Source of the DNA: Dongshaea marina
GTDB taxonomy: Bacteria > Pseudomonadota > Gammaproteobacteria > Enterobacterales > Aeromonadaceae
DNA: 64,000 bases
Direction: 5' to 3'
Assembly: GCF_003072645.1 (NCBI RefSeq)
Contig: NZ_CP028897.1
Span: 2,803,658 to 2,867,657, forward strand
Shown here: positions 8,159 to 57,603 of the stretch, piece after piece
How positions within the stretch are numbered: the first letter of the stretch is position 1
How the letters are laid out: the number at the start of each line of letters is the position of its first letter
Translations under genes and position numbers: made by a program
The notes under the pieces: model-generated
Seen by the model: only the letters and a program-made list of their open reading frames with translations
What the model was told of the DNA's origin: nothing
The model's database searches: none

Positions 8159-8603
8159 CTAGAGCGTAACATGAGGTCGGGCTAAATAGTTGCTCCTATT
8201 ACTGCTACATCTGTTGATGTGTGCTAGCAGACTCGCTATGAATCCATCCATGGAAGCTCCACCACATCGGCTATCATCCCTGATAGCCTTTCCCAGTTCG
8301 GCATCCATACCTCTCGTTCAATGGCTTAAAACCATTTCACCCCTGACGCAGAGGGTCTGCTCATTCACAATTCAACAGCTGCCTCAGGGACCTACTGTTA
8401 GGAACAGTTATTTAGAGCATTTTTGGTTTAATCCGGGTAATTATTCGCGCCCCTCAAGTTCAAGTGCTGCTTTGAGCTTTGTTAAGCTGACCTTCTGCAG
8501 CAAGGATGCTGCAGTAGAGCAACATGGATGTGACTTGCGAGTCAGCGATAAAAGTCAAAGCTGCTTTCATGAGATGAACCGGTTTATCCGGAAAACGCTC
8601 TAG
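8159..8603. repeat. Composite hairpin-module repeat (MITE-like), copy 1
   Basis: The composite begins CTAGAGCGT and ends AACGCTCTAG, so its outer ends are inverted. Inside, 8182-8415 is a unit with inverted ends CTAAATAGTTGCTCC and GGAACAGTTATTTAG. It is nearly identical to 48571-48805 in opposite orientation. The rest (8416-8603) is a second unit with ends TAGAGCATTTTTGG and the complement of CTAGAGCGTTTTCCGG, related to 57455-57603. Both contain hairpins such as GGCTATCATCCCTGATAGCC (8269-8288) and GCAGCAAGGATGCTGC (about 8498-8513). No convincing protein is encoded. Confidence 0.75.
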
Positions 8604-8719
8604 CAACGAACCCGCATCACGAAACAATCGCTAGTATCAACATCCGTCGTCAATCGTGGACTTTTCACGCTCAGTGATGACAACTTGCCACCATCGCTGA
8701 TATAGCCTCACGAATTTGA

Positions 8720-8728
8720 CTATTGGTA
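8720..8728. repeat. Target-site duplication, left copy (CTATTGGTA)
   Basis: CTATTGGTA directly precedes the left end of the IS at 8729 and is repeated exactly at 9770-9778 after its right end. A 9-bp duplication is typical of IS903-type elements. Confidence 0.9.
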
Positions 8729-9769
8729 GGCGTTGTTTCCTAAATCGATGGAACCTTTTGGTTTGAGCAAGATCTGATCTCCCATCGTCATGATGGGAAG
8801 CTTCAAATGGGTAAATCCAACGGCAAAATCAAGAACTGGTCTCAATACAATAAAGCATTGGTAAAGCGTGGCTCGATCACCTTCTGGTTGGATGAGAATG
8901 CAGTCAAAAACTGGCATTGTCAGGAGCACCATGGCGACAGAGGAAGAGGCTTCACGTTCAGTGATACCGCTATCGAAACCGCGTTGATGCTCAAAGGAGT
9001 ATTCAGCCTTCCACTGAGGGGGTTGCAAGGATTCCTTGATTCGGTCTTTCAGCTCATGAATGTTCCTCTTAAGTCACCGACTTATAGCTGTATCAGCAAA
9101 CGAGCGAAGACCGTTGAGATAAAATATCGCCGCCCCAGCCGAGGCCCTGTTGCTCACGTGGTCGTTGATGGGACAGGGCTCAAAATCCACGGTGAGGGAG
9201 AGTGGAAAATGCGCAAGCACGGAAAAGAAAAGCGCCGAGTTTGGCGCAAGCTCCACCTGGCTGTTGATGCTCAAACTCATGAAATCATAGCAGCCGAGGT
9301 CAGCCTTGATAGTGTTGGAGATAACGAGGTGTTGCCGACCTTATTAAACCCACTACGACGCAAGATACAGCAAGTCTCAGCAGATGGTGCATACGATACA
9401 GAGGCTTGCTATGCACTGTTACAGAGAAAGGGTTGTAAACCAACGATTCCTCCCCGCAGTAATGCAGCTTACTGGAAAGGAGATCATCCCAGAAATGAAG
9501 CTGTCGAAGCGCTTAAAAATGGGCAGCTTTCACAATGGAAGCATGACAACGACTACCATCAGCGCTCGTTAGCAGAAACAGCAATGTCTCGCTACAAACA
9601 GCTCAATTCTCCACAGCTGAGCTTACGTTGTTATAACGGTCAGGTTGGGGAAGCCTTGGCCGGAGTTAAAGCTTTAAACAAAGTGATCGGGCTTGGTATG
9701 CCTGTCAGGCAGCAAGCTGCCTGAATGGGTACAAGTCAATTATCAGACTCGGATTTAGGAAACAACGCC
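8729..9769 (+). mobile_element. IS5-family (IS903-type) insertion sequence
   Basis: This is a complete 1041-bp insertion sequence. Its terminal inverted repeats begin GGCGTTGTTTCCTAAATC on the left, and the right end is the complement of nearly the same 18 bases. It carries one full-length DDE transposase and is bracketed by a perfect 9-bp duplication CTATTGGTA. The intact ends and duplication imply a recent insertion. It landed in the non-coding DNA between the kinase of module 1 and small protein B of module 2. Confidence 0.93.
8807..9724 (+). CDS. IS5-family transposase (IS903 group)
   Basis: The transposase (305 aa) catalyses cut-and-paste movement of the surrounding element. Features of the DDE fold are visible: VVVDGTGLKIHGEGEW with the first Asp, VSADGAYDTEACYALL with the second, and RSLAETAMSRYK with the Glu in the YREK-type region. 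The length is normal for the IS903 group, and the reading frame is intact. It is the only gene in the element at 8729-9769. Confidence 0.93.
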   Translation: MGKSNGKIKNWSQYNKALVKRGSITFWLDENAVKNWHCQEHHGDRGRGFTFSDTAIETALMLKGVFSLPLRGLQGFLDSVFQLMNVPLKSPTYSCISKRAKTVEIKYRRPSRGPVAHVVVDGTGLKIHGEGEWKMRKHGKEKRRVWRKLHLAVDAQTHEIIAAEVSLDSVGDNEVLPTLLNPLRRKIQQVSADGAYDTEACYALLQRKGCKPTIPPRSNAAYWKGDHPRNEAVEALKNGQLSQWKHDNDYHQRSLAETAMSRYKQLNSPQLSLRCYNGQVGEALAGVKALNKVIGLGMPVRQQAA

Positions 9770-9778
9770 CTATTGGTA
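9770..9778. repeat. Target-site duplication, right copy (CTATTGGTA)
   Basis: This is the exact copy of the nonamer at 8720-8728, adjoining the right end of the insertion sequence. Confidence 0.9.
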
Positions 9779-9876
9779 AATAACCCCCTTTTTCCTAAAT
9801 CGCTCTCTTTGAGCCATCTATCGGCAGCGTCAACACAGTGAGTATTTATTAATAAACATCAATTCAGATGACGGAA

Positions 9877-10074
9877 TCATTGCTCCTCAAGGAACAGCTC
9901 ACTATGATGGCTGACTGATTTGAGGCATACCTCCTCCCCGAACGATGGGAGAAAGCCATTGTCTCGGGGGTAGTTCACCCGAACATATCTTTTCTTATCG
10001 CGCTCGATGACAATAGCAAATCTCTTTTGGCTATTGGCATAAATAACGCTCCCGCGACTTTCTACATAACTCAT
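9877..10074 (-). CDS. Small protein B, paralogue of the 4648-4854 product
   Basis: This 65-aa protein of unknown function shares IYANSQKRFAIV, YVRVNY, GFLPSFGE and S.SHHS with small protein A. The frame is open to 10122, but ATG 10074 is preferred. It gives an N-terminus of the same length as the paralogue (MSYVESRGSVIYAN against MNPGKKIGRVIYAN), and AGAGGGCGAGCA precedes it. It diverges from the second RstA-like regulator, exactly as protein A does from the first. No signal peptide or membrane helix is seen. A small nucleic-acid-binding beta-barrel is one possible structure. Confidence 0.75.
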   Translation of the reverse strand: MSYVESRGSVIYANSQKRFAIVIERDKKRYVRVNYPRDNGFLPSFGEEVCLKSVSHHSELFLEEQ

Positions 10075-11169
10075 TGCTCGCCCTCTGATAACCCATGATT
10101 CTCTATAGCCATGTTCCAACACTTGGATAGAGAAAGCTTAGCGCTGCTAACACTTTCCCTTCAGCAGGTGATAAATAGTGGCTATTAAGATAATAAATGA
10201 CCGTTCCTAAATTTTTCTAGCTCTGGAAAGATACATAATGTGCTTTGATTGTTCCACTGTATATTTTTTCTTTTTTATGATGATTTATGACCTTCTCACA
10301 TCGATTTCATGTATCACTATAGCATTTGAAAACTTCCTATATCCGCACACCCTAGGGTCAGGTGTCAGTGGTCTACTCAACTTCGAGTTGAGTAGCTGCT
10401 ATATGGACAAATCCATCATTATTTGATGGTAGGTGACACAGTGTGACTTTTTATATTTTATTGTGATCTCGTTAGCCCATCTCAGGTAAAATCTTTTACC
10501 TCCACCCTGAGAGGAGATAAGGCACAACTCCCTCATGGGTATTAGGTTTTCAATCGAATCACTAATTGCAGCACTGAATAGCAATAGTTCAACAGACTTA
10601 TCCAGCCAGAACGATAAAACTAAGGCAAAAGCCTTAGTTCATCTACAACACAAAGCAGTTATAATGAAGTTGCCGTTATTAATACAGTCCGATCAAATGT
10701 TACTCCCAGCCAGCAGCGGAGCCGCATCCCGTGGACAAGTAGCAGGCATCAGGGATGTCACAAACCGATAAATTTAATATCGAAAAATGTATCTACTTTA
10801 AAAAACAACAGAATATTGTATATCTTGACTCTGAACCCGCTTTGAACTGCGCCTGTCTGATTGCTCTCAGTTTTATTTTATGACATGATCTTCTCTCAAT
10901 TGGCGAATAAAAACCATAAAGACAATTTCACATCCTGGTCATGCTTTACTTATTTCATAAAATAATAGCACCTCCAGTGTTTGAGTTTAAACCAGGCATT
11001 AGATATAAATTGCAAATCTTATAGTTTCTCTGTTTTTTTAAAAAATTGGCCTTACAGAGCATAATAGTTCACCAATCTCATTATGCTCTGTAACTTATTT
11101 TTAAATTTTCACCCAGCTCCATTACTTAACGTGCGTGGGTATTTAGCTCTTAACCAGTATTAAACATCT
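10075..11169. other. 1.1-kb structured non-coding region ahead of RstA-like copy 2
   Basis: No gene is convincing here; a 78-codon frame at 10535-10771 lacks a ribosome site. Perfect hairpins are frequent. CTACTCAACT/AGTTGAGTAG sits at 10373-10395 with loop TCG. AGGTAAAATCTTTTACCT is at 10484-10501. AACTAAGGC/GCCTTAGTT is at 10618-10639 with loop AAAA. A 14-bp terminator-like stem is at 11052-11093. The density suggests a structured leader RNA or a separate small RNA that ends shortly before the response regulator. Confidence 0.5.
11052..11103 (+). terminator. Terminator-like hairpin just upstream of RstA-like copy 2
   Basis: TTACAGAGCATAAT (11052-11065) and ATTATGCTCTGTAA (11080-11093) pair without mismatch over 14 bp, followed by CTTATTTTTAAATTTT. 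This looks like an intrinsic terminator on the plus strand, though the stem is AT-rich. It ends about 65 bases before the start codon at 11170. Either an upstream RNA stops here or the regulator leader is attenuated. Confidence 0.6.
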
Positions 11170-11871
11170 ATGATGACAAAACGAATTTTACTTGTAGAAG
11201 ACGATTCCGATCTGTCGCAACTCATCACAACCTACCTTGAGAAGTATGGCTATCAGATCCAAGCTCATACTCAGGGAGATACGGTGCAACAAGCGATTAA
11301 GGAGTTCAAACCGGATCTGGTGGTGTTGGACATCATGCTTCCCGGTCTTGACGGACTCGAAATCTGTCGGACCATTCGCCCCGGTTATCAGGGAGCGGTG
11401 ATGATGATGACGGCCTGCAATGAAGATATGGATCAGATCCTGGGGCTTGAGCTCGGCGCCGATGACTATCTGATCAAACCCGTTGAGCCCAGGCTGCTCC
11501 TCGCCAGGGTGAGGGCGATGTTTCGACGTCGCGCGGCAGAGCTCCAAACAGCAGACTCTCAGCTCCTTTCATTTGGTAATTTTGAAATTGACCAGGCCAA
11601 TCGTACCGTATCCATTGCCGAAGAGGCCATTGAGTTAGCGGGGGGTGAATTTGACCTGCTATGGGCTCTGGCACGTCACTCAGGAACTATCCTCAGCCGG
11701 GATGAACTGGCTCAAGAGCTCAGAGGTGCAGGATTTGACGGATTAGATCGGACCATAGACGCCAAGGTTTCTCGCTTGCGCCGCCATCTCAATTCCCACC
11801 CTAATTGTCAGATCCAAATCAAGACAGTTCGCAATAAGGGATATCTGCTGACCGGGGCAAATGCCGGATGA
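11170..11871 (+). CDS. RstA-like response regulator, copy 2
   Basis: This 233-aa OmpR/PhoB-class regulator is highly similar to copy 1. It shows VEDDSDLSQLI, the phospho-acceptor Asp in VLDIMLPGLDGLE, and DDYLIKPVEP in the receiver domain. LRGAGFDGLDR and IKTVRNKGYLL lie in the winged helix. The start may be ATG 11170 or ATG 11173; the latter gives MTKRILLVEDD, which aligns best with copy 1. No clear Shine-Dalgarno is visible. The stop overlaps the start of the kinase gene (ATGA), so translation is coupled. The duplication may allow the two systems to answer different signals, since receivers and DNA-binding domains are far better conserved than the sensor domains. Confidence 0.9.
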   Translation: MMTKRILLVEDDSDLSQLITTYLEKYGYQIQAHTQGDTVQQAIKEFKPDLVVLDIMLPGLDGLEICRTIRPGYQGAVMMMTACNEDMDQILGLELGADDYLIKPVEPRLLLARVRAMFRRRAAELQTADSQLLSFGNFEIDQANRTVSIAEEAIELAGGEFDLLWALARHSGTILSRDELAQELRGAGFDGLDRTIDAKVSRLRRHLNSHPNCQIQIKTVRNKGYLLTGANAG

Positions 11872-13210
11872 ACACTAACCAGCTAACCCATATTCCTCAC
11901 AAAGTGCTGTTCCACTTTATCTCTTTGATGTTCCTGTGCACACTGCTCCCAATCTTTCTGGGAGGATTGGTCGAGTATCTGTATCATGACCACTCCTCAT
12001 ACCTCCCCGAATCGTTACGACCCAAAGACATTCCAGGTATCATTCAACAGATCGATCATCTTTTACCTGAGCAGAAAGAGCAAAAGCTGCAACAGCTGAG
12101 TAAGCGCTATGGCGTGCCTTTTGAGCTAAAACCGCCTGAGATCTCAAGCCCATCACTATTTCATCGAACCCTGCAGATCGAGGGGATTCCTATGAGTTAT
12201 GAGGGGCGAACCATACTCTCTATCCCCAACCCCTACGGTGATACCCTGCAGATTGGCCCATTGCCTTTGAAGTTTCCAATAGGAACATCATGGGTCAACA
12301 GCAGGATCAAGCTACTCGCTGTCTGGCTACTCTTTTGTGCCCTACTGTTTTCGGTAGTGACCTACCTCTATCTTCGCTCCCACTTTCAGGATCTGCTCAA
12401 ACTGAACCAAACCTCCAGCAAGCTCGCCGCCGGAGATATGAATGCAAGGTGCTACGGCTTAACCAGCCCCTGCTCAGCCCCCTTCAACACTCAGTCAACC
12501 AGCTTGCTTGTAAAATTGAGACCATGGTCCAGGGGTGGAAAGCGATGACCAATGCGGCAGCTCATGAACTGCGGACCCCTTTGGCTCGCCTTCAGTTTCG
12601 AAGCTCACTTTTAAGTGAAGAGGAAGATCCCGAGCTCAGAGCCCAGCTTCAGGAGGGGATCGAACGCAACATTAAAGAGCTCCAAGCGATGATTGATGCG
12701 GTACTCCAATACGGGAAGATCAGTCGATGTGATATTCCGCTGCATCGCGAGAAAACCCGACTTTCAAGCTGGCTTCATAAAATCGTCACTCAGGAGCGGG
12801 AGACCTGCTCCCTCAAGATGACACTCAAGTGTTTTGCCACTGAAGCCTCGGTCGATCGTAAGCTTCTCTATATCGCTTTGCAGAATCTTTTAGGTAATGC
12901 CCGTAAATATGCACGTTCCCAGATCTTACTCACCGTCTGCCCAAGTGAAGATAAAACACTGTTTATTGTTGATGATGATGGTCCCGGTGTCCCACAGAAG
13001 CACCAGGGAATGCTCTTTGAGCCCTTCTACCGACTTGATCGAACCCAGGATCTCACCAAGGGGGGCTCCGGGCTTGGACTCAGCTTTGTCAAACTAATTG
13101 CTGAGCATCACAGGGGACAGGTGAGCGTGATCAAGAGTCCTTTGGGAGGTGCCCGATTTATCCTGACCATTTCAAGCGCGGGCTCGGATACGCTCGGCAA
13201 TAGCCGATGA
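11868..13210 (+). CDS. RstB-like sensor histidine kinase, copy 2 (one frameshift)
   Basis: This partner kinase is about 447 aa once corrected. It has an N-terminal membrane helix (LFHFISLMFLCTLLPIFLGG), a periplasmic domain unlike that of copy 1 in detail, and a second helix (LLAVWLLFCALLFSVVTYLY). HAMP, AAHELRTPLARLQFR, NLLGNARKYA, DDDGPGVP and GGSGLGLSFVK follow. The frame breaks in the HAMP region. Adding one C to the C4 run at 12467-12470 continues TSP into LLSPLQHSVNQ, as copy 1 has it. From ETMVQGWKAMTNAA onward the two kinases are almost the same, so crosstalk between the systems is likely unless the regulators discriminate. The start ATG overlaps the regulator stop. Confidence 0.88.
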
Positions 13211-13278
13211 CAATACGAATAAGCCATTGCAGATCGCAGGGATGAGGGTAGACAAAAACTGTATTTGAAATACCATCA

Positions 13279-13334
13279 GGGATTGCCTGCAACAGCAATC
13301 CCCGGAAAGTTGCAGCCAGGAGGAGTACTCCTCC
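13279..13334 (+). other. Two hairpins after the second kinase
   Basis: GGGATTGC (13279-13286) pairs with GCAATCCC (13295-13302), and GGAGGAGTACTCCTCC (13319-13334) is a perfect palindrome. They lie between the convergent kinase and amylase genes. Neither has a strong T tract, but together they probably help to end transcription from one or both sides. Confidence 0.4.
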
Positions 13335-13344
13335 GGGCTCTTCA

Positions 13345-14753
13345 TTACTGCTCCAACCACATCCGTGAGGAGCGCGCCGGGATTGTGACATTCACTCCCC
13401 CGTTACCATCGGTATAAAATGTTGAGTCGTCTAACGTCTCCTGGTAGCCCTTGTTACTATCCAGACCACTCACCCAGCCAGATTCAGCCGTTCCACACTT
13501 ATTTATCCCCACCAGGCCCTGATCGCCACGACGGAACAGCAGGATGCAATCACTCGCCTTAACCACTGTCATGGGTTGGCCCTGAACCGAGTTATGGAAA
13601 CGGATCATCGCCTTGATATCAGAGCGATTATAGTAGTTCACCCAACGAGAGTTATCCTCCGGATGGCTGGCATTGCTCTCTCCATGATCCGAGTAGACCA
13701 TAGGCACACCACCATCACGCCCCAGAATATAGGCATAGCCGAGCTTTTCATCGGTTGGATCCATGATATTGCCACGGAAAATATCGTTATTCGGTATATC
13801 GTGAGTCACCACAAATGTGAGTGCCCTGAACTTGTTCAGTCCATCGGGATCACTCAGATCGCTCATCTTCCCGCTAAAGCTAAAGGTGTTCTTAATGATT
13901 GTAAATAAGGGGAAGTCATAAGCATTGTGCTCCGGGTTTTGGGACAGATAATCACTTAAAAAGTGGTAATCTGAAGCACTCTTATTCCCCGAGATGATCT
14001 CACCAAAAACATACATTCCCTGAATAATTTCGGGCGTGAAGATCGCTTTAATCTGAGCCTCAGTCATATGCTTGGCCGCATCGATGCGAAACCCCTTGAT
14101 CCCCATCGCCTTGAGGGCCTTAAGATATTGCTGCTGCTGGCTGACAACCCAGCTGTTATCGTTGAGATCCGGCAGCCCGAAGTCACTGATATTATTGTTG
14201 TCACCGGCAGCACCCAGCCAGCCATACTGAACCTGACCGGTATTGTTGTAATCATGAATCACCTGGCGATCATGAAAATCACCTGAGCCCAGGAAGTTCT
14301 TATCCAGATCATCCCCATCACTGTTATAGAGCTTCTGGCTCTGATAATAGTCCCAGCGGTTGGCATAATCGCTGAGCACTGCAGCACCCGGATAACTAAG
14401 ATCCCAGCCCCGACTCTGATATTCATTGGCCATATGATTCAGCACAATATCGGCATACACAGAGATGCCACGGCTTTTCATCGCATCGATCAATGCCTGG
14501 AGATCCTGTTTATTGCCCAGGGGATTATCAATGACCCGGTAGTCCTGGGGCTGGTAGCGACCCCACCAGGCATCACCAGAGGATTTGAGGGGGGCGAGAT
14601 CAACACCTCCTTATAGCCGGCATTTTTTATCTCATCGGCCTTGCGCGTGACCTCACTGTATTTCCAGTTAAACGCATGGAGGATGACGTCCGCCTTCGCT
14701 CCAAAGGTAAGCAGCATGCAAGTTGCAACAACAAGTTGCCAAAAATTTCTCAT
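13345..14753 (-). CDS. Secreted alpha-amylase, GH13 (one frameshift)
   Basis: This GH13 alpha-amylase hydrolyses alpha-1,4 glucans outside the cytoplasm. It begins with a signal peptide (MRNFWQLVVATCMLLTFGAKA, 21 residues) followed by DVILHAFNWKYSEV. Conserved regions are present: DIVLNHMANE, GFRIDAAKHM with the nucleophile Asp, FGEII with the acid/base Glu, and VVTHDIPNND in place of the more usual NHD motif. The frame breaks after ISPP. One more base in the G6 run at 14589-14594 restores LKSSGDAWWGRYQPQDYR, giving 469 aa. ATG 14753 is chosen because GGAT lies eight bases upstream. It probably belongs to the alpha-glucan locus with the MFS, GH31 and LacI genes on the same strand. Confidence 0.88.
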
Positions 14754-14903
14754 TATCATCAATCCTTAATTTTCATGTTAAGTCAGTTCCTACTCAACTC
14801 GTATCATCACCCACTGTTTTCCTTTTGTGGCTCTTTATACTTCTCTCCTTTGTCAGATTAAAGTTTGATGCCCGGGCAAAGAGACCCTTTCACCCGAGCC
14901 GTA

Positions 14904-25173: not shown

Positions 25174-25698
25174 ATGTCCCGTAAACCGACCTCTATTGAG
25201 CAAACCACCGAGCGCGTCATCTTTGCCAGCCGCTGGTTGCAGGCCCCCATGTACCTGGTGATGCTGCTGATCCTGTTTGCCTTTGTCTATTTTGCTTTTG
25301 CAGATGTCTATAGCCTGTTTCGGCATCTTGGAAGTATCACCGAAGAAGATCTCATTATCACCTCTTTGACCCTGGCGGATCTCATCCTCATCGCCAACCT
25401 CATCGTAATTATCGTGATCAGTGGCTATGAAAATTTCGTCTCGCGGCTGGATCTGGAACATCAGGAAGGAGAGCCAACCTGGCTTAAAAAGATCAGTCCG
25501 ACCGGGGTTAAAATCAAAATAGCGGCCTCCATTGTGGCCATCTCATCGATTCAGCTGCTTAAGGTTTATTTTGAAACCTCGACTCACGCCAAAGCGATCG
25601 ATACCCGATTATTACAATGGACGGTGATTATTCACATCACCTTTATCCTGTCGGCGCTGCTGCTAACGGTAATGAGCTGGGTGGAGAAAAGGATCTAG
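25174..25698 (+). CDS. yqhA: YqhA-family (UPF0114) membrane protein
   Basis: This 174-aa inner-membrane protein of the UPF0114 family has four likely helices. The first is around APMYLVMLLILFAFVYFA (residues 24-41), then LADLILIANLIVIIVISG, a helix near KIAASIVAISSIQLL, and LLQWTVIIHITFILSALLL. The conserved start TTERVIFASRWLQAPMY is typical. The biochemical function of the family is not established. ATG 25174 opens the gene. Its stop codon TAG is also the first part of the CTAGAAC end of the repeat at 25695, so the repeat abuts or forms the end of this gene. Confidence 0.88.
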   Translation: MSRKPTSIEQTTERVIFASRWLQAPMYLVMLLILFAFVYFAFADVYSLFRHLGSITEEDLIITSLTLADLILIANLIVIIVISGYENFVSRLDLEHQEGEPTWLKKISPTGVKIKIAASIVAISSIQLLKVYFETSTHAKAIDTRLLQWTVIIHITFILSALLLTVMSWVEKRI

Positions 25699-26081
25699 AA
25701 CATTTTCTCCATAAATGGGGTTAATGCTATGTTTAATCTCTGGCTTTGCAGACTGACTCGCAATGCCGATTATCATCCATGATAATCCTTACCAGTTCGG
25801 TCTCCCTGCCTCTCGCTTTGTTGCGATGCAACGACGCCCCTGGTGCTCTACTGCAGCGGGTATCTTCCCTGATACTCGCCTCCAGTTCAGCGATATCCAT
25901 CCATGGATATCTATCCCAGTTCGGCATCCTGCCTCTCGTTCAGTTGCTTCACAACTTCACCCTGCTTCTCGTTTCGCGGCTTTGCAGCAACACCCTTGCT
26001 GCAGAGGGTCAGCTTAGCAAAGCCAGAAATTCTTTATCTCAGGCCAAAGTGATGACCCGGGTTAGTCCGAAAGTGCTCTAA
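25695..26081. repeat. Expanded hairpin-module repeat (MITE-like), copy 2
   Basis: The element has ends CTAGAACATTTTC and the complement of TTAGAGCACTTTCGG. A further inner inverted pair is TCTGGCTTTGC and GCAAAGCCAGA. Between them lie hairpins with different but self-complementary stems: GATTATCATCCATGATAATC (25768-25787), GATATCCATCCATGGATATC (25892-25911), a GGTATC/GATAC stem near 25859-25876, and GCAGCAA/TTGCTGC (25984-26002). They are separated by repeats of CCAGTTCGG and GCCTCTCG. On the minus strand the loops expose GGA. No protein is encoded. Confidence 0.75.
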
Positions 26082-26205
26082 GGCGCTGAGACATGCCCGA
26101 TAACTCTCCCTTTTGGGGAGGAAAGTGCAGGCTTTTCGTCATTTGATCGACAAAGAGGCATGTGTAAATATGCGTCATACCTTGGACAAAGTAGTCAAAT
26201 GATTC

Positions 26206-42288: not shown

Positions 42289-42365
42289 ACTATGACTACA
42301 GAATCACTCTAACAGTCAAAAAAACGGTTGAAATCGATTGTTAGCTCTGAGAGAGCAACTTGCTA

Positions 42366-43211
42366 GGGGCTGTCGTCATGAGCGGACTAGTTTGAGTACA
42401 ATATATTCTTTCATCATTAATCTGGAACTACACAATGAAGAGCCCAGCCCACCGACGCCATGACATATCAGACCGAGTATGGAGCCTAATCGAACCCCAT
42501 ATATTGGGAAGAAAAGGTGATTGGGGAAAGGCGGGTCGAGATAACCGACTCTTTATCAATGCTGTTTTTTGGATTTTAAGGACAGGCTCACCTTGGAGAG
42601 ACCTTCCTCCCGATTATGGCGACTGGAAAAATACCCATCGACGCTTCAGTCGCTGGCGTGATAAGGGAGTTTGGGCTCGCCTCCAGGAACGTTTAATCCA
42701 TGAGCCTGATTTTGAGTGGCTGATGATCGACGCCAGCCATATCAAAGTCCACCCAGATGCCAGCGGTGCTCAGGGAGGTAATCAGGATATGGGGATAACA
42801 AAAGGGGGCTAAACAGTAAAATCCACTTGGCTGTAGACTCTCATGGCATGCCTGTTAAGTGCTTTGTTACCTCAGGTACAACGGCAGACTGTTCTCAGGC
42901 CTTGGCTCTGATTGATAGTGTCGATGCTGAGTATTTACTGGCTGACAGAGGCTACGATACCAATGCCTTGGTCTCCCAAGCCGAGTTTCTGGGAATGAAA
43001 GTGGTTATTCCATCGAGGAGAAACCGGAAGGTGCTACGGGAGCATGATAAAGGTCTCTATAGAGTTAGGCATTTGGTAGAAAATGCTTTTCTTCATCTGA
43101 AGAGGTGGCGAGGAATCGCGACACGATATGCAAAAAATACCGCTTCATTTGAAGCGGCGGTTCAAATACGTTGTGTAGCACTATGGGCTGCCATCTTATG
43201 ACGACAGCCCC
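42366..43211 (+). mobile_element. IS5-family (IS427-type) insertion sequence
   Basis: This 846-bp element has terminal inverted repeats GGGGCTGTCGTCAT at both ends and is flanked by TA (CTA on the left, TAG on the right), the short duplication usual in this group. It carries a transposase in two frames joined at AAAAGGGGGC. It sits between viaA and the bor-like gene and disrupts no recognisable gene. Confidence 0.9.
42435..43201 (+). CDS. IS5/IS427 transposase in two overlapping frames
   Basis: OrfA (42435-42812) contains the N-terminal DUF4096 region RHDISDRVWSLIEPHILG and the first Asp in LMIDASHIKVHPD. It ends at TAA after NQDMGITKGG. A shift of -1 at AAAAGGGGGC (about 42798-42809) continues LNSKIHLAVDSHGMPVK and ends WAAIL at 43201, with the second Asp in LADRGYDTN and the Glu in HLVENAFLHLKRW. 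The joined protein is 255 aa. Several IS427-group elements use a programmed -1 frameshift here. Given the many other G/C-run errors in this window, a missing G is the competing explanation. Confidence 0.85.
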
Positions 43212-43263
43212 TAGCCATGATGAAAATAAACTTCACGGCTAGCGGCGTAAATAACTTAAACAC

Positions 43264-44610: not shown

Positions 44611-45743
44611 ACTATCATCAGGCTATTTGGAAGGACGCAGAGTGTAGCATAGCTTGAGAGACCAATCCTCAAACCTGCCCCAGCTTCACCCTCCCCGAGA
44701 TAAAAAAAGCAATTCCCACGACTGATCTCCATTAAGATCAGCTGCTCGTGATTAAGATGGAGTGACATCAACAACAGATGAGTCTCCAACACTGGGTTAT
44801 GTCTCAGATCCGTTGCTCATACAAAGGGGTACTGACTTCAAGATCACCAGCCTTCTGTCGCAGGGGTGAAGCTTCAAAGAAGCGAAACGAGAGGTAGAAT
44901 ACCGAACTGGAAGAGGGTATCGGGGATGATAGCCGGGGCAGCAGAGGTTCCATGGACGGATACACACCCTGTTGGTGAGACGTGAAATCAGACATCAACT
45001 ACAGATGTAATACCATTCATGAAAGAAATGTGATCGGCTTGCTGATAATCCATGAGTCATTTGAGCCACGCAGCGAGTACATCCATGTATGCCCGATGCC
45101 AGCATCCATGCTGACAACGGGCTAAATCACTCACAGATTATCCCAATCAGTGCAAGTCATATCCTGATCACCTAACTATTGGGATTGGTATAAAACACGC
45201 TCCAACACTGAACCCAGCCGCACCTTTAGCGAAGCATCGAAATCGCTATAGCTCATAGACTTTAAGGGGTCAAAAGCCGCAGGCTGTCAGTGACTGCGTC
45301 GCTCACCTATGACGCACCCAACAATTTGTCACTGCCCGTCACATGACTCAAACAATAAGCATACAGAAGCCTTGGCGATTATTTTGTAATTTAAACAAGG
45401 CATTAGGATAAGTCTGCCCTTCAAACAATATGACAAATAAACAGAGCCGATTAAATATCGCAACACATTTTATTGAAGGTGCAACTGCTACTTATTTTTT
45501 ATAGTGAGTGATTAAAAGTGATAGAAAATCGCAGAAAATGAAACGCCTCATGATGAAAATACTGATATATTTCATCGCTTATTTTCAGAAAAAATAAACA
45601 GATAACCCATCGAAATCAAATATAGGGTATAAGTTGCGAAAAAGCCGGATGTCAAAAGCCTGCTTTGAAGGGGCCGCCCATTTTGTGGTGAACCCAGCTC
45701 GGGATAGAGTCAGGATTCATCAGCATCAAGACCTTGGAATCTC
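44611..45743. other. 1.1-kb gene-free region with degenerate hairpin repeats
   Basis: No credible gene is present. Around 44870-44970 a plus-strand sequence matches the repeat family: CGAGAGGTAGAATACCGAAC, then GGGTATCGGGGATGATAGCC and TTCCATGGACGGAT. Around 45055-45130 there are further hairpins TACATCCATGTA and AGCATCCATGCT, and CCCAATC/GATTGGG near 45143-45190. The remainder is AT-rich and presumably includes the promoter of the VirK-like gene. Confidence 0.55.
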
Positions 45744-48570: not shown

Positions 48571-48805
48571 CTAAATAACTGTTCCAAATAGTAGATCACT
48601 TGAGGCAACTGTTGAATTGTGAATGAGCAGACCCTCTGCGTCAGGGGTGAAATGGTTTTAAGCCATTGAACGAGAGGTATGGATGCCGAACTGGGAAAGG
48701 CTATCAGGGATGATAGCCGATGTGGTGGAGCTTCCATGGATGGATTCATAGCGTGTCTGACAGCACACATCAACAGATGTAGCAATAATAGGATCAGCTA
48801 TTTAG
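48571..48805. repeat. Hairpin-module repeat (235 bp), copy 3
   Basis: The unit has inverted ends CTAAATAACTGTTCC (48571-48585) and GGATCAGCTATTTAG (48791-48805). It is nearly identical, in opposite orientation, to 8182-8415. It includes GGTATGGATGCCGAACTGG, the 8-bp stem GGCTATCA/TGATAGCC (48699-48718) with loop GGGA, and TTCCATGGATGGA. GGA lies in loops on the plus strand. Confidence 0.8.
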
Positions 48806-49551: not shown

Positions 49552-49625
49552 AGCGAGGATAGATCTCAGTGTGAGTTGGTTTAGGCTCAGCCTGGCAGCG
49601 TGAGCCTCAGGGGGTACTTAAGCCA

Positions 49626-50563: not shown

Positions 50564-51529
50564 CGGTTTTCTCCTTGATTTTAGTAACGATCGCCTCGGT
50601 CAGAGGCTTATCAAAACGGGCACTCACCGGCAAATACCACCAGTTATCGCGGGCAAATCCGTGACACTTGACCGCATCTTTTTCGGTCATCAGCAATGGC
50701 AGCTCCCGGGACAGGCTCTCGAGCTCCTCGCTCTGGTAGGCATGGTGATCGGCAAACGCATACCGGCCGGAAAGTTCATAGCCAAGACCTTCCAGGCTCT
50801 CAAAAAAACGTTGGGGATTACCGATGGCCGCTACCGCATTCACCCGCTTATCCATGAGCTGAAGGCTTGGGTCTTTTAGGTTCTTAAGCGGATCGGCCAT
50901 CAGCTCCATCTCATACTCACCCGGTTGCGCTGTGCCACCGTTGCAGATAATGAAATCTGCGCTGTTTAAACGCCAGACCCCCTCACGCAGCGGCCCCATC
51001 GGCAGCAGATGGCCGTTGCCGAAACGGCGTCCCCCATCGATGACAACCAGCTCTATATCCCGGTCCAGGGCGTAGTGCTGCAGACCATCGTCTGAGATGA
51101 TCACATCCACCCCAAACTCTCGATAGAGCTGCCAAGCCGCCTCCGGGCGTTTGGGCGAAACCACCACCGGACACTGACAACGGCGACGGATCAATACAGG
51201 CTCGTCACCGGCAAGAGCCGTAGAGCAGGCATCATCAACCACCAGGGGTACTCGGCGGCCTTGCCGCCATAACCCCGGCTGATCACCCCGGGATTAAATC
51301 CCTGAGTTCTGAGGGTTTCAACCAGGTGGATCACCACAGGTGTTTTGCCGTTCCCTCCAACCGTGAGGTTTCCCACTACGATCAAAGGTACCGGCGGCTT
51401 ATTAGCCCGGCGCAACCCACTGCGGTACAGCCATCGGCGTACACCACTGATGAGGGCAAAAAGCCCCGCCAGAGGGGCTAGCAGATAGAGCCAGCGCTTG
51501 TGCGCAAACCAGGCTGAGGTGATATCCAT
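50538..51529 (-). CDS. lpxK: Tetraacyldisaccharide 4'-kinase LpxK (one frameshift)
   Basis: LpxK phosphorylates the lipid A precursor at the 4' position at the inner membrane. The N-terminal hydrophobic anchor ([16 protein letters not shown]) is followed by the Walker A-like [20 protein letters not shown], then [12 protein letters not shown]. The second part has [20 protein letters not shown] and [19 protein letters not shown]-like sequence. The frame is lost after EYP. One base added to the G4 run at 51245-51248 restores [16 protein letters not shown] and 330 aa. Because lpxK is essential in most LPS-producing bacteria, an assembly error is the likely cause. It overlaps msbA by one base. Confidence 0.92.
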
Positions 51530-53280
51530 CAGGATTGCTGACCAAACTGCAGGGTTCGCAGCTGAGCATAGGCACCACTTTTCGCCATCAGCTCGGTGTG
51601 ATTGCCCTGCTCAACAATCTGCCCCTCATCCATCACCAGGATCAGATCGGCATTTTCTATGGTGGATAAACGATGGGCAATCACCAGTGAGCTACGTCCC
51701 TGTTGCAAGTTATCCAATGCTCCCTGGATAAAACGTTCCGACTCGGTATCCAGGGCCGAAGTGGCCTCATCAAGGATCAACACCGGAGATTCGCGCAGCA
51801 GAGCCCGGGCAATGGCGATCCGCTGACGCTGACCTCCGGACAGAGAGGCACCATTTTCACCTATCTCGGTATCCAGGCCCTGTTCCATCTTGCTGACAAA
51901 CTCGTTTACATAGGCAGATTCGGCCGCTTGCTCAATCTGCTCACGGTTAAACTCTCCCTCACCCGCATAGGCGATATTCCCGGCGATCGAATCGTTGAAC
52001 AGACACACATGTTGAGACACCAGGGCCATCTGGCGCCGCAGGGGTTTAAGCTTGTAGTCTTGCAGGTTCACCCCATCGAGTAGGATCTCCCCCTCCTCAA
52101 TGTTATAAAAACGGGTGAGCAGGCTGGCAATGGTGGTTTTTCCTGAGCCGGAACGTCCCACCAGCGCCACCGTCTGGCCCGGTTCCATGGTAAAGGAGAT
52201 ATTCTTAAGAGCGGGTCTGTCACCTTCAGGGTAAGAAAAGCTGACGTTACGAAACTCCACCTTCCCCTTGGCTTTCTCGACCTCGATCTTGCCCGGATCG
52301 GGCTCCAGTTTACTGTCGAGCAGATCAAACAGGCTCTGGCAGGCTGCCATCCCCTTTTGAAACTCGCTGTTGATCGATGTGATGCTGCGGATCGGCTTAA
52401 GCATCGCCATCATCGCGGTCATCACGGCGGCAAAAGCACCTGCGGTCAGTCCCTCTTTAATGCCAGGGAATGAGGCCAAAAACAGCAATACCGACAGGGC
52501 ACAGGAGGCGATCAACTGTACGATCGGCGTTCCGATGGCATTGACCGCCACCAGCTTCATGTTTTGCTGGCGCACATGATTGCTCACCTCACCAAAACGG
52601 TCCCCTTCAACCTTCTGGCCACCAAACATCAGTACCTCTTTGTGGCCCTTGATCATCTGCTCGGAAACCGTGGTGATGCTACCGACCGCATCCTGGATCC
52701 GCCGGCTAACCACTCTGAAGCGACGACTGATGATCCCGATCAACACCCCGACAATTGGGCCGACCACAAATAAGATGAGCGTCAGTTGCCAGGATTGATA
52801 GATCATCACCGCCAGCAGACCTATGATGGTACAGCCCTCCCGAACCAGAGTCACCAGGGTGCTACTGGCGGTGGAGGAGATCTGAGTTGAGTCATAGGTG
52901 ATCTTGGCCAGCAAACGGCCGGTCTGTTGGCGGTCAAAGTAGGAAACCGGCATCGAGACCAGGTGATTGAACACGTTGCGCTGCATCCGCATCACCACAT
53001 TATTGCCCACCCAGGACATAAAGTAGTTTGAGACAAAGGAGCACAGGCCGCGGATCACCACGATACCGAGGATCGCCAGCGCCATCCAGCGTAGGACAGA
53101 GAGATCCTTATCGCCAAAGCCATTGTCAATCAAGGGCTTAAGCATGTATACCAGGGCACTGTCTACGGCGCCGTAACCGGCCATACCGATAATAGCCACA
53201 CCCAGTGCCAGCTTCATGTCGGAAACATATCCCAGCAAGCGTCTGAGTAACGGCCAGGAGCTTCTCTTTTGATTCTTCAT
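51529..53280 (-). CDS. msbA: Lipid A export ATP-binding/permease MsbA
   Basis: MsbA flips lipid A-core across the inner membrane. The 583-aa half-transporter has six transmembrane helices in residues 20-310 (for example [20 protein letters not shown]) and an ATPase domain. The latter has Walker [16 protein letters not shown], signature [17 protein letters not shown], Walker [13 protein letters not shown] and the H-loop [17 protein letters not shown] 53280 gives the usual start. It is followed directly by lpxK, and comEC lies upstream. Confidence 0.94.
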
Positions 53281-53323
53281 CCAATAACTTCAGGTAATGG
53301 AAATAGGCCGACCATTCTAGCGA

Positions 53324-55523
53324 TTATCGCCAAGACAACCAAGGGTTGTATTTGCGATACCAGGGACTTAATCGATTACGGTAAGCAGATGGTTCAACTT
53401 TATCCGGATAGATAGCAAAGCGGATCTGGCCACTTTGCGCCGTGCTCCACTGTTGACGCCCCCATAGCGTTTCCTGACCTTGGGGTCGGGAAAGCCCCAG
53501 GGGTTGTTGATACTGGCACTATGAACCACATACTCTGGATTAACCGAATCAATAAAACGAGGACTTGATGAGGTTCGGCTTCCATGGTGAGGGGAGACTA
53601 AAATGGAACTCGCGAGCTTGTCACCCCAGTTGCTAACCAGCTGGCTCTCACTTCTCTGACCGATATCACCGGTTAATAGCAGCTGGTGCTTTCCGTCACT
53701 CACCTGTAATACGCAGGAGTTCTCATTATCCCCCTGCCCGGCTTGCCTGGGTGTAGTATTGCCACAGATAACCCCTGCCACTCAAACCTCTGGCCAGCCC
53801 GGCAGAGCCGTTTCCCCTGCGCTCTCCAGGAGCCGATATGTTCGCCGATTTTAACTTTGCCCGCCAGAAACGCCGCCCCTCCTGCATGATCCCTATCCCT
53901 GTGACTTAGAATAAGATAATCCAGGCGGTCAACTCCCGCTTTTCTCAGGGTGGGCAGGATCACGGCCTGGGCGTAACTAAAACCGCCTGGGTACGCATTT
54001 CCGGTATCATACAAAAGAGCCCGCCCCTCTTTAATCACCATTACCGCCAGTCCCTGGCCGACATCCAGCACCCGTACCTGCCAACCTGGCCCCGGGCTAA
54101 AACAGGAGAGCAGCAGGCAGGCCACCCCAACAACCATAGGGAGGTGCATCTTAAGTCTCCAGCAACTCAGCAGAAAAACCACTGCCACTATGACCATGAC
54201 CCACTCCCAGGAAAAAGGAAGCCATAGCGGGAGCTGACTCTGCAGCCCTCCGAGAGCAAGATGAACCCCGCTAAGTAGCTTATCAGCCCCATAAAACAGC
54301 CATGAGGAGAGAGCTGGCCATAGCAGTGAGCATCCTGTTGCCAGCAAAACCCCGGGGATCACCAGCAGGGTAAACAGAGGGATCAGCAGCAAGTTGATAA
54401 AAAGCGCGACCCAGCTCACCCCATCAAAAAACAGCACCTGCAGGGGAAGAAGCCCAAGTAGCAATCCAAGCTGGATCCCGACAAGACCACTGCGTGGATA
54501 GAGCCAGTGAGTCACCAGGATCACCGACACCGCCCCGAAAGATAACCAGAATCCGGCGTTCAGCAGCTGTAAAGGATCAAATAGCACCAGCAACAGATAG
54601 GTCCAGAGCAGATAGCGCCAGGGAGGCCAGTACCTCTGGCACAGGGTCACCCCGCTTAAGATCAATAACATCAGCAAGGCTCTCTGGGTTGGCAGAGTAA
54701 AACCAGCCAACCAGGCGTAGCTAATGGCGAGGGCAGCCGCCACCAGATAGGGGCCATAGCGACCCAGTCCCCTGCCAAGCCACCATCCCGCCAGGGCCAC
54801 CAGCCCAATATGCAACCCGGAGATCGCCAGCAGATGGCTGATCCCGGCTTCACGATAGAGTTGCCAATCGGAATCATTGATAAAACGACGATCGCCAAAG
54901 CTAAGGGCCAGGATGATCCCCTGGGATGAAAAACCCCGGGTTAACTCGCGCACCCGATTGAGCCAGTCCAGGCGAAATCCGGGATGCTGAGGCACAATAG
55001 CCTGCCACTCTTTAATCGTGCCGGTGGCACCGATCCCTCTGCTATAAAGCCAGCGGGGATAATCAAAACCGGCAGGATTCGCGATCCCATACACAGGCCT
55101 TAGCCGCGTCGCGACCGTCAGCTTCCATCCCGCCTCGATTGTCTGCTCACTATCATACCAACTCAGTCTCAGGTAGAGTGGACGAAGGGATGAAAAATGT
55201 TGCTCATCCACAGAAGTTGCTCTTAAAGTCAGCCGTCCTGAGCTATCATTTTTATATTGAATATCAACTACTTGACCTGAAACCATCTGAGTCCCTTTTC
55301 GTGATGGCTCAGGCAGGGATAGAGCCCCCAGGCGCCAGTCGATCATGGCGCTTGCCGACAGGGCTCCACACAGCAACAAACAGGGGGCTCTGAGCCAGGG
55401 AAGACTCCAGGCAACAACCAGCAGCAAGGGAATAGCTACCACAGCCCACCAGGGGGTGAGCCAGGGAGAAATAAGGGCCACCAGTGTCGCACCAACGGCC
55501 AGGAGAATAAGCGTGCGATCCAT
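53324..55523 (-). CDS. comEC: DNA uptake channel protein ComEC/Rec2 (two frameshifts)
   Basis: ComEC forms the inner-membrane channel for single-stranded DNA in natural transformation. The start MDRTLILLAVGATLVALI lies at 55523. An OB-like domain, a polytopic competence domain (GISHLLAISGLHIGLVALAG) and a metallo-beta-lactamase-like domain follow, with DVGQGLAVMV, LILSHRDRDHAGG and SPHHGSRTSS. Two breaks each need one base in a C5 run, at 53730-53734 and 53459-53463. The second restores the proper tail, QSGQIRFAIYPDKVEPSAYR and then the final WLSWR, with a stop at 53324. The corrected length is 733 aa. It diverges from the first DUF2062 gene by only 31 bases. Confidence 0.9.
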
Positions 55524-55554
55524 ATGGTTCAGTATGTAACAGGGAAGGACAGCC

Positions 55555-56085
55555 ATGCCGAAAAAAATGTTCCGGCGCTTCATGCCCGATCCGAAGCAGC
55601 TCAGGAAACATAAACACCTGAAGATCTTTGGGGCGCTGTTGCATGATGCCAATCTATGGCACCTCAATCGTCGCTCCGCCGCCGGTGCCTTTGCGGTTGG
55701 ACTATTTATGGCCTGGATGCCGATCCCCTGTCAGATGCTATTTGCCGCCGGAGCCGCCATTTTGTTTCGGGTCAACCTGCCTATTTCGGTGGCTCTGGTC
55801 TGGATCTCTAATCCCATTACCATGCCTCCGCTGTTTTATGCTGCCTATGTTCTCGGGGCTAAGCTCACCGGCCTGTCGATCCCTGCCGATCAGGGCGATC
55901 TGACCTGGCAATGGCTGCTCTCCGCGATGGGAACCGTGGGGCCCGCATTTCTGCTGGGATGCTTCATCTTCGCAATCCTCAGCTCAAGCATCGGCTACTT
56001 CTTTGTGCGCCTGCTGTGGCGCTACTCGATCCTGCGGGACTGGAATAAGCGCAAACTACGCCGCTCACAGCAGCAAAAACACTAG
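55555..56085 (+). CDS. DUF2062 membrane protein, paralogue 1
   Basis: This 176-aa membrane protein of the DUF2062 family has a basic N-terminus (PKKMFRRFMPDPKQLRKHKH), the conserved block LWHLNRRSAAGAFAVGLFMA, then WMPIPCQMLFAAGAA, LVWISNPITMPPLFYAAY and a final helix (AFLLGCFIFAILSSSIGYF). Function is unknown; members often adjoin comEC or msbA. AAGGA stands before ATG 55555. Two further paralogues follow in tandem. Confidence 0.85.
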   Translation: MPKKMFRRFMPDPKQLRKHKHLKIFGALLHDANLWHLNRRSAAGAFAVGLFMAWMPIPCQMLFAAGAAILFRVNLPISVALVWISNPITMPPLFYAAYVLGAKLTGLSIPADQGDLTWQWLLSAMGTVGPAFLLGCFIFAILSSSIGYFFVRLLWRYSILRDWNKRKLRRSQQQKH

Positions 56086-56168
56086 CCTACCTCTGCTGTT
56101 TTGGATAAAATCCGCTCATTACCGAGGTGTTACCCCCTCCTATCATAAGCTGTGGAGTCGTCATCTCC

Positions 56169-56696
56169 TTGAAGTTACAGAGACGAATCAACCGGTTTCT
56201 TCCTGATCCGGCAAAAATCAAACAAAACCGCTTCCTCAGGGTATTTGGCTCTCGCCTTTACCGGAATAACTTGTGGCAACTCAACCGCCGCTCGGTGGCA
56301 GGGGCCTTTGCGGTCAGCCTGTTTATGGCCTGGGTTCCCCTGCCCTGTCAGATGCTGTTGGCCGCAGGTGCCGCGATCCTGTTTAGTGCAAACCTACCGG
56401 TTGCCGTTGCACTCGCCTGGGTATCAAATCCGGTGACGATTCCCCCCATGCTCTACTTTGCCTATAAAACCGGTGCAGCCTTGCTGCAACAACCGCCCCT
56501 GCATCTTCCTTTTGAGCTCAACACTCAGTGGTTGTTGCAATCACTCCAACAGGTAGGCCCTTCCCTGCTACTTGGTTGCCTTTTGTGCGCTCTATGCTGC
56601 AGCCTTGCCGGTTATATTGCAGTTCGCGGACTATGGCGCTACTCTGTCGTCCGCAGCTGGCAGCGACGCTCCCAGGCGCGCTCCCTGTATAATTGA
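56169..56696 (+). CDS. DUF2062 membrane protein, paralogue 2
   Basis: This second DUF2062 copy is about 175 aa and close to paralogue 1: INRFLPDPAKIKQNRFLRVF, LWQLNRRSVAGAFAVSLFMA, WVPLPCQMLLAAGAA and LAWVSNPVTIPPMLYFAY. The start is uncertain. TTG 56169 has GGAG eleven bases upstream and matches the length of copy 1, whereas ATG 56127 would add 14 unrelated residues. It lies about 80 bases after copy 1. Confidence 0.8.
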   Translation: MKLQRRINRFLPDPAKIKQNRFLRVFGSRLYRNNLWQLNRRSVAGAFAVSLFMAWVPLPCQMLLAAGAAILFSANLPVAVALAWVSNPVTIPPMLYFAYKTGAALLQQPPLHLPFELNTQWLLQSLQQVGPSLLLGCLLCALCCSLAGYIAVRGLWRYSVVRSWQRRSQARSLYN

Positions 56697-56714
56697 CGGC
56701 CGAATTTCAAGCTT

Positions 56715-57185
56715 ATGAAAAAACACCTTTGCCCGGAAAAGCTCAGAGCCAAACTGATGCAGTCACGCTTTGACTGGGTTCGCAAGATCATTGACCGACC
56801 CGGACTCTGGCACAAAAACCGGGTCAGTATTGCACGGGCGGTTCCTATCGGGATCTTTATCGCCTGGCAGCCCTTCCCTGGCCACATGATAGTAGCGGCC
56901 ATCGCCTGTGCCATCGTCAGTGCCTATATCCCTCTGAGTATTGCCCTGGTGTGGCTTTCCAATCCCTTTACCTGGCCATTCCACTATGGGCTGGCGTTGG
57001 TCACTGGCGAGAAGCTTCTCGGACTGCCACTAAGCCCCCTGAATATGCACCATGTGATGGCCAGCCTGGGTCAGGACTATGTAGCGCTATGGTGCGGAAG
57101 CCTGCTTTGGGGAACGATAACTGCTGTACCGGCCTACCTGATGGTGCGGTTGTGGCAGCGCTATAACAGAAATTCACAGCCGTAA
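56715..57185 (+). CDS. DUF2062 membrane protein, paralogue 3
   Basis: This third, more diverged DUF2062 copy has 156 aa. KIIDRPGLWHKNRVSIARAV and IGIFIAWQPFPGHMIVAAI correspond to the conserved block, and IALVWLSNPFTWPFHYGLAL to the NP motif; the middle segment is shorter than in copies 1 and 2. ATG 56715 follows the copy 2 stop by 18 bases. It resembles the separate short DUF2062 type seen singly in other gammaproteobacteria, so the cluster may combine an older pair with a distinct relative. Confidence 0.82.
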   Translation: MKKHLCPEKLRAKLMQSRFDWVRKIIDRPGLWHKNRVSIARAVPIGIFIAWQPFPGHMIVAAIACAIVSAYIPLSIALVWLSNPFTWPFHYGLALVTGEKLLGLPLSPLNMHHVMASLGQDYVALWCGSLLWGTITAVPAYLMVRLWQRYNRNSQP

Positions 57186-57188
57186 TAT

Positions 57189-57458
57189 CTAGGATCTGTT
57201 GACACTTCCAATTTTGAACCTGTTGCCCCTGAAAATGTTCTGTTCCGGCGCGAATCATGAGGTTTAGTTGTTCTAAATGAGTGATGAGCAACAATCAACA
57301 GGGCTTTTTCAGGCGCAACCCGAAGGGCAGTGGCTATTTTCCCTCCCAGCTGCGTTATCAGATGCTCATGTAGAGCAACTACACCACACATCTACTGCCT
57401 TGCTGGATGAAAAAATTTCCAACTGCAGAACCAAATCTGAAACCTCAACAGAGCCTAG
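57189..57458. repeat. MITE-like element with CTAGG ends
   Basis: The left end CTAGGATCTGTTGAC and the right end (complement CTAGGCTCTGTTGAGG) are imperfect inverted repeats of about 30 bases. The 270-bp element encodes no convincing protein. Its right CTAG is also the left end of the next repeat (57455-57603), so the two are joined through a shared CTAG. Confidence 0.65.
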
Positions 57459-57603
57459 AGCATTTTTCGGATATATAGGTTCACCCTCATAAAAGCAGCT
57501 TTGACTTTGATCGCTGACACGCAAGTCACATCCATGTCGCTCTGCTGCTGCATCCTTGCGTTTGCGGGGGTCGATGACCCGGATTAAATCAAAGATGCTC
57601 TAG
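57455..57603. repeat. Short hairpin-module repeat (149 bp), copy 4
   Basis: The element runs from CTAGAGCATTTTTCGG to GATGCTCTAG. It is homologous, in inverted orientation, to 8416-8603: AAAGCAGCTTTGACTT, CGCAAGTCACATCCATG and CCCGGATTAAA are common to both. It appears to be the shortest version of the family, with about two hairpin modules. CTAG at both ends suggests a CTAG (or TA) target. Confidence 0.7.

What the first reader, a model, noticed from the sequence alone, without database searches (positions are those of the whole stretch)
8159..57603. Interspersed modular hairpin repeats with conserved GGA loops, resembling Csr/Rsm decoy RNAs
At 8159-8603, 25695-26081, about 44870-45130, 48571-48805 and 57455-57603 there are related elements built from short hairpins. 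The stems differ from module to module but stay complementary, while the loop is nearly constant: GATTATCATCCATGATAATC, GATATCCATCCATGGATATC, GGCTATCATCCCTGATAGCC, TACATCCATGTA, AGCATCCATGCT. Between them a linker CGAGAGG...CCGAACTGG recurs. On one strand the loops read AUGGAU, AGGGAU, CAGGAUG or CAAGGAUG. CsrA/RsmA binds GGA in hairpin loops (consensus RUACARGGAUGU), and CsrB/RsmZ RNAs are strings of such hairpins. UACAUGGAUGUA here matches that consensus closely. The 387-bp copy has about ten GGA triplets on the minus strand. Inverted ends and several copies say mobile repeat. Compensated stems say the RNA fold is kept. Transcription is not shown.
Basis: partly seen in the sequence, partly recalled or inferred. 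Interest (0 to 1): 0.72.

Follow-up and report, generated by a model that had tools for sequence, protein, structure and literature searches.

The report
Scattered repeats bearing CsrA-binding RNA hairpins
Hundreds of scattered, mobile-looking DNA repeats in this bacterium carry hairpins that match the high-affinity binding site of the global regulator protein CsrA, and unrelated repeats in other gammaproteobacteria carry the same hairpin, so many genomes may hold a dispersed set of CsrA-binding RNAs that nobody appears to have described; binding and transcription remain untested.

Summary
The five window elements belong to several families of short interspersed repeats covering about 3% of a 5.03 Mb chromosome. 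An unbiased 0.4 Mb sample gives 55 CA-NGGA-TG hairpins per Mb, against 5 per Mb in two relatives. Stems vary freely with compensated changes. Among homologous copies GGA differs at 1.5% of sites, flanks at 18%. In the best-aligned copies the conserved loop is C-[A N GGA X]-G with only N and X variable. That is the NMR-defined high-affinity CsrA/RsmE site (PMC4005645). GGA is strongly strand-biased. A second CANGGA usually sits 20-39 nt downstream, within the range a CsrA dimer bridges. The genome encodes one CsrA and four Rfam CsrB hits elsewhere; the elements themselves are not CsrB.

The hairpin model gave strong hits in 61 of 368 genomes, a loop-permuted control in 8.

Not shown: transcription, CsrA binding, or a decoy effect. 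GGA strands have no orientation preference relative to genes, copy-private mutations are not clearly depleted in GGA, and the csrA+/csrA- comparison is inconclusive. Best reading: mobile repeats that display CsrA sites in read-through RNA.

The parts
8182..8415 (-). Element C, copy 1 (GGA strand minus): ends CTAAATA.../...TATTTAG; hairpins at 8269-8288, 8300-8311, 8243-8254
8413..8606 (+). Element B, copy 1 (GGA strand plus): ends TAGAGCATTTTTGG.../...CCGGAAAACGCTCTA
8495..8514 (+). Hairpin CTGCAGCA-AGGA-TGCTGCAG
8269..8288 (-). Hairpin GGCTATCA-GGGA-TGATAGCC
25694..26084 (-). Element A, composite copy with several GGA hairpins on the minus strand (11 GGA minus, 1 plus)
25768..25787 (-). Hairpin GATTATCA-TGGA-TGATAATC
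25860..25875 (-). Hairpin GTATC-AGGGAA-GATAC (ANGGAX hexaloop with X=A)
   Evidence: read directly
25892..25911 (-). Hairpin GATATCCA-TGGA-TGGATATC
25923..25933 (-). Hairpin GGCA-GGA-TGCC (CsrB-like CAGGATG), paired with the hairpin at 25892-25911
44851..44975 (+). Element D part with GGA module (hairpin 44918-44931 partly decayed)
45078..45116 (-). Paired hairpins TACA-TGGA-TGTA (45078-45089) and TGTCAGCA-TGGA-TGCTGGCA (45097-45116)
48571..48805 (+). Element C, copy 2 (GGA strand plus): hairpins 48676-48687, 48699-48718, 48733-48744
57455..57603 (-). Element B, copy 2; CANGGATG sites with 3-bp stems only

Best explanation
These are several families of short interspersed repeats with MITE-like inverted ends flanked by TA. 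One strand encodes arrays of CsrA-binding RNA hairpins (ANGGAX hexaloop on a C-G-closed stem), usually in pairs spaced 20-39 nt. Proposed mechanism: when a neighbouring gene is transcribed through a repeat on the GGA strand, the RNA presents paired sites that a CsrA dimer bridges. The roughly 275 strict sites per chromosome then act together as a dispersed CsrA buffer and mark the 3' regions of their host transcripts. Shown by sequence: the motif, the stem covariation, the GGA strand bias, the pair spacing, the copy number, and occurrence in unrelated repeats of other gammaproteobacteria. Inferred: transcription, CsrA binding, and any regulatory or element-level benefit.
For: Unconditioned hexaloop census: 140 of 216 C-G-closed hairpins in repeats are ANGGAX, against about 8 of 290 outside; first loop base A in 140 of 143, X free (T102 A18 C16 G4). 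Homologous copies: GGA 1.5% divergent, flank 18%, stem 21%, loop N 36%; column profile C.08 A.02 N.31 G.01 G.01 A.03 X.29 G.03, equal to the NMR high-affinity motif ANGGAX on a C-G pair (PMC4005645) and close to SELEX RUACARGGAUGU (PMC7652899). Changed stem pairs: 161 of 278 still paired, 101 double-compensated against 24 double-broken. GGA is the most strand-biased trinucleotide, 4.5 against 1.75 per 200 nt after masking the loops. Second CANGGA at 20-39 nt in 57 of 64 cases, and at 20-29 nt in 26 of 46 in other genomes. csrA and four CsrB hits are present. Permuted-loop control 8 genomes against 61.
Against: No transcription or binding data. GGA strand sense 25, antisense 36 in tandem gaps. 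Copy-private changes hit GGA at 6/570 against 208/10576 in flanks, p=0.16, so selection on individual copies is not demonstrated. Hairpin presence is not significantly tied to csrA: 55/312 csrA+ genomes against 6/56 csrA- (p=0.24). Stems of 6-8 bp are longer than the mostly 4-bp-or-shorter SELEX hairpins (PMC7652899). Copies share ancestry, so counts are not independent events.
Confidence: 0.62

Rival explanations
1. DNA-level rival: the hairpins form in single-stranded DNA or cruciforms and are recognised by the transposition machinery of the repeats; GGA in the loop is a transposase contact.
For: Elements are multi-copy with inverted ends and TA flanks; no strand preference relative to genes; GGA conserved in source lineages but not clearly in private changes.
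Against: Unrelated repeats with different ends, in different gammaproteobacterial families, share the same loop. GGA enrichment extends to linkers. A7 stays fixed while its palindrome partner X varies, which fits RNA hexaloop recognition and not a palindrome. Only three IS200-type Y1 transposase loci, fragmentary, were found.
Confidence: 0.15
2. Neutral rival: structured repeats spread by copying; loops are constant by descent and stems stay paired through cruciform-templated repair.
For: Copies share modules by recombination; private GGA changes not significantly depleted.
Against: GGA is about 12-fold less divergent than adjacent flank in the same copies while loop position N next to it varies at 31-36%; the same motif occurs in unrelated repeats; permuted control.
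Confidence: 0.1
3. Cis rival: CsrA sites on repeats act locally (3'-end processing, stability, Rho-dependent termination, or silencing of spurious translation of the repeat) and not as a trans-acting sponge.
For: Elements sit in convergent (35/75) and tandem (43/159) gaps and almost never in divergent gaps (4/64); sRNAs made by read-through or from 3' UTRs that bind CsrA/RsmA are known (RrA/B/F, PMC8144298; RsmW, PMC4950607).
Against: No orientation bias toward the sense strand of the upstream gene. Avoidance of divergent gaps may only reflect harm to promoters.
Confidence: 0.3
4. Another reader of the hairpins (a different RNA-binding protein or the anti-Shine-Dalgarno sequence) is responsible.
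For: GGA is also the Shine-Dalgarno core; csrA-negative genomes occasionally score.
Against: The full ANGGAX/C-G pattern with two free positions fits CsrA; ribosome pairing would not need a hairpin loop or a fixed A before N.
Confidence: 0.08

Closest known systems
CsrB/CsrC and RsmX/Y/Z decoy RNAs (RF00018, RF00195, RF00166)
   Same: Strings of GGA hairpins with CA(N)GGA(X)G loops on one strand; paired sites suited to CsrA dimers
   Different: These are dispersed repeats in hundreds of copies with 6-8 bp variable stems and lower GGA density (6 per 200 nt against about 15 in CsrB); no promoter or terminator shown; no Rfam match; real CsrBs lie elsewhere in the same genome
TwoAYGGAY (RF01731) and Bacillaceae-1 (RF01690) predicted CsrA-binding RNAs (PMC4333381)
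   Same: Two hairpins with AYGGAY loops, predicted CsrA ligands; some hairpins here have GA/GA at the stem foot
   Different: No Rfam hit in the window at gathering score or in six element loci up to E = 1; those are Clostridia/Bacilli families
MITEs and composite intergenic repeats such as BIME/REP and BOX (general knowledge)
   Same: Short, non-coding, multi-copy, inverted ends, modular mosaics, 3'-region location
   Different: The conserved feature is an RNA-protein recognition loop on one strand; no RAYT partner or autonomous transposon identified
TAACTGA repeats of Beggiatoaceae (PMC4679880)
   Same: Dispersed repeats proposed as binding sites of a post-transcriptional regulator; CsrA considered
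   Different: No GGA and no hairpin; that paper itself judged CsrA unlikely

Membership tests
CsrB/Rsm sRNA families (Rfam) | Match to the Rfam covariance model | tested here: not met
   0 hits at gathering score in the window; none up to E=1 in six element loci apart from a chance snoRNA match
CsrB/Rsm sRNA families (Rfam) | Multiple GGA motifs in hairpin loops, ANGGAX consensus | tested here: met
CsrB/Rsm sRNA families (Rfam) | Own promoter, terminator and expression; binds CsrA | not testable with these tools
   no RNA-seq or binding data; promoter scan not run
MITE | Terminal inverted repeats with a short target duplication, no coding capacity, many copies | tested here: met
   TIRs GAGCNNTTTC and AATARCTGWTCC flanked by TA; 67 matches to one element; ORF 8190-8603 has no Pfam match. 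Empty sites were not compared, so the TA duplication itself is inferred
MITE | Autonomous parent transposon with the same ends | tested here: inconclusive
REP/BIME with RAYT | RAYT Y1 transposase and a conserved tetranucleotide at the hairpin foot | tested here: inconclusive
   Only fragmentary IS200-type Y1 loci; the tetranucleotide was not examined and the conserved part here is the loop
High-affinity CsrA/RsmE site (Duss 2014) | ANGGAX hexaloop directly on a stem closed by C-G, N and X variable | tested here: met
CsrA dual-site ligand | Two sites 10-63 nt apart | tested here: met
   57 of 64 downstream CANGGA at 20-39 nt; range from PMC7652899
TwoAYGGAY RF01731 | Match to the Rfam model | tested here: not met

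The most novel reading that the evidence does not exclude
Across Gammaproteobacteria, unrelated families of mobile or dispersed repeats have independently evolved the same high-affinity CsrA hairpin, so a substantial share of genomes carries a dispersed CsrA-binding RNA layer (tens to hundreds of sites) that rivals CsrB in site number and links the copy number of mobile repeats to global post-transcriptional control.
Probability: 0.42. Interest if true: 0.9.

Novelty: new variant of a known kind. Interest (0 to 1): 0.78.

Why it matters
CsrA/RsmA is a global regulator, and its titration is thought to rest on a few dedicated sRNAs. If repeat-borne sites bind CsrA, the CsrA budget of many bacteria has been miscounted: here about 275 strict hairpins against roughly 60-90 GGA motifs in the four CsrB hits. 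It would also be a case of mobile repeats converging on a host RNA-binding protein, and it gives poorly understood intergenic repeats a specific, testable ligand.

Tried and rejected
Rfam membership: no match. Same element in plasmids or phages: no match; short modules in plasmids gave none or two weak hits. Pattern scan of 84,980 species genomes: one chance hit inside a coding sequence in Desulfopila; the own genome may be left out there. RAYT/REP: only IS200 fragments. Coding explanation: the 137-aa ORF has no Pfam match. Co-directional 3'-UTR hypothesis: no orientation bias. Selection on each copy: private mutations not significantly depleted at GGA. csrA presence against hairpin presence: right direction but p=0.24 and 0.40. 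Of the six csrA-negative genomes that scored, three hits lie in long open frames and look like coding chance (L285, L286, L219), two are unclear or intergenic (L287, L237), and one genome (G068, 75% complete) carries the true module. Literature: the searches found no description of CsrA sites on interspersed repeats; the library lacks most subscription journals.
Full report
**Observation.** The five places hold related repeats. In the window, CA-NGGA-TG hairpins with stems of at least 6 pairs number 6, against 0.32 in Markov shuffles. The window lies at 2.80-2.87 Mb of a 5.03 Mb chromosome whose genus has no other held species; its family contains four other held genera. One element finds 67 matches in its own genome, and the module pattern GAACTGGN{4,22}CANGGATG occurs 45 times with no reversed-control match. 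I fetched 0.84 Mb of this genome in 110 merged stretches, including 20 evenly spaced 20-kb samples. In the unbiased sample, repeats of this type cover 3.0% and strict hairpins occur at 55 per Mb, against 5 per Mb in each of two relatives of the same family.

**Anatomy.** At least four element types were seen, by their ends: A (CTAGAACATTTTCTCC.../...CCGAAAGTGCTCTAA), B (TAGAGCATTTTTGG.../...CCGGAAAACGCTCTA), C (CTAAATAACTGTTCC.../...GGATCAGCTATTTAG) and larger composite families near 3.11 and 4.06 Mb. A, B and C look MITE-like, with inverted ends flanked by TA. Internal modules are shared and swapped between types. The constant part is the hairpin: 63 distinct hairpins with variable stems all read CA-NGGA-TG under the scan. 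An unconditioned census of C-G-closed hexaloop hairpins shows that 140 of 216 in repeats are ANGGAX, against about 8 of 290 outside; the first base is A in 140 of 143, while X is T, A, C or G.

**Constraint.** I aligned homologous copies by their flanks, not by their loops. GGA differed at 1.5% of sites, flanks at 18.3%, stems at 21%, the loop N at 36%. By column, excluding gapped copies, C is .08, A .02, N .31, G .01, G .01, A .03, X .29, G .03. The two free loop positions are exactly the two looped-out nucleotides of the NMR-defined high-affinity CsrA/RsmE motif, an ANGGAX hexaloop on a C-G-closed stem (PMC4005645). Because A stays fixed while its palindrome partner X varies, a plain DNA-palindrome constraint fits poorly. 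Of 278 changed stem pairs, 161 still pair, and double changes are compensated 101 times and broken 24 times. The pair counts agree, but those hairpins were chosen by pairing, so only the variety of pair types is informative there. GGA is the most strand-asymmetric trinucleotide, 4.5 against 1.75 per 200 nt with the loops masked. A second CANGGA lies 20-39 nt downstream in 57 of 64 cases. CsrA bridges sites 10-63 nt apart, best above 18 (PMC7652899).

**Host system.** The genome has one csrA and four CsrB hits, three above cut-off, whose loops are CA-GGA-TG and relatives. The elements themselves match no Rfam family, so they are not CsrB members.

**Beyond this genome.** A covariance model of the hairpin gave best E of 0.05 or less in 61 of 368 other gammaproteobacterial genomes; the same model with the loop permuted to NAGG gave 8 (Fisher p=4e-12). 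In the own genome the counts were 26 and 0. In G185, from another family, CA-NGGA-TG is the commonest tetraloop hairpin context of an unbiased 0.4 Mb sample (21, permutations 0), carried mostly by an unrelated dispersed repeat; a rescan of the whole genome found at least 48 copies, with 34 in G079 and 18 in G149. Many loci in other families show similar modules with different stems, again GGA-biased (397 against 225 in flanks) and paired at 20-29 nt. This suggests convergence or very old module spread, which these tools cannot separate. E-values of these models are rough, and only the top candidates per genome were scored in the large scans.

**Function.** My best reading is that the RNA of the GGA strand binds CsrA. 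What follows from that is inferred. Elements occupy convergent and tandem gaps and avoid divergent ones (35/75, 43/159, 4/64), yet in tandem gaps the GGA strand is sense 25 and antisense 36 times, so no orientation is favoured. Private mutations do not clearly avoid GGA (6/570 against 208/10576, p=0.16). GGA was therefore under strong constraint in source lineages, but constraint on each copy is unproven. A link to csrA presence is in the expected direction but not significant (55/312 against 6/56). Trans titration and local effects on the host transcript remain open. Precedents for CsrA/RsmA-binding RNAs arising by read-through or from 3' UTRs exist (PMC8144298; PMC4950607).

**Novelty.** The binding motif is known. 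Its placement on interspersed repeats in hundreds of copies, and its recurrence on unrelated repeats across the class, was not found in the literature searches made, which cover open-licence papers only.

Noticed in passing
G000:C1:3545587-3546113 (L215): A CsrB locus that looks enlarged: two Rfam CsrB hits lie end to end and near-identical GGA-hairpin modules continue further upstream, suggesting an internally duplicated CsrB of more than 500 nt.
   Followed up: partly
G045 and G037 (same order): Five and six RF00018 CsrB hits respectively, mostly clustered, suggesting tandem CsrB amplification.
   Followed up: no
window 6117-8138 and 11171-13177: Tandemly duplicated genes (70-78% identical over long stretches); the copy at 6864-8144 has histidine kinase domains.
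   Followed up: no
window 42362-43215; L002 about 1660-1690: Inverted ends GCTAGGGGCTGTCGTCATGAG about 850 bp apart, apparently a small insertion sequence; the same end abuts a repeat element in L002.
   Followed up: no
window 8807-9724: DDE transposase gene (DDE_Tnp_1_5) directly beside the 8182-8606 pair of elements.
   Followed up: partly
G000:C1 3111250-3112450, 4057000-4058600: Much larger composite repeats with many other hairpins (for example TTGTGCCGCAGGCACAA, TGACCGCAGGTCA, AAAAGTAA...TTACTTTT), some resembling repeats seen in other gammaproteobacteria such as G185 and G186.
   Followed up: no
L268 (G185): A likely genuine Rsm-type sRNA: GGA hairpins CCTTCGCACGGATGTGAAGG and GGCAGGATGCC followed by a GC-rich hairpin and a T run.
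   Followed up: no
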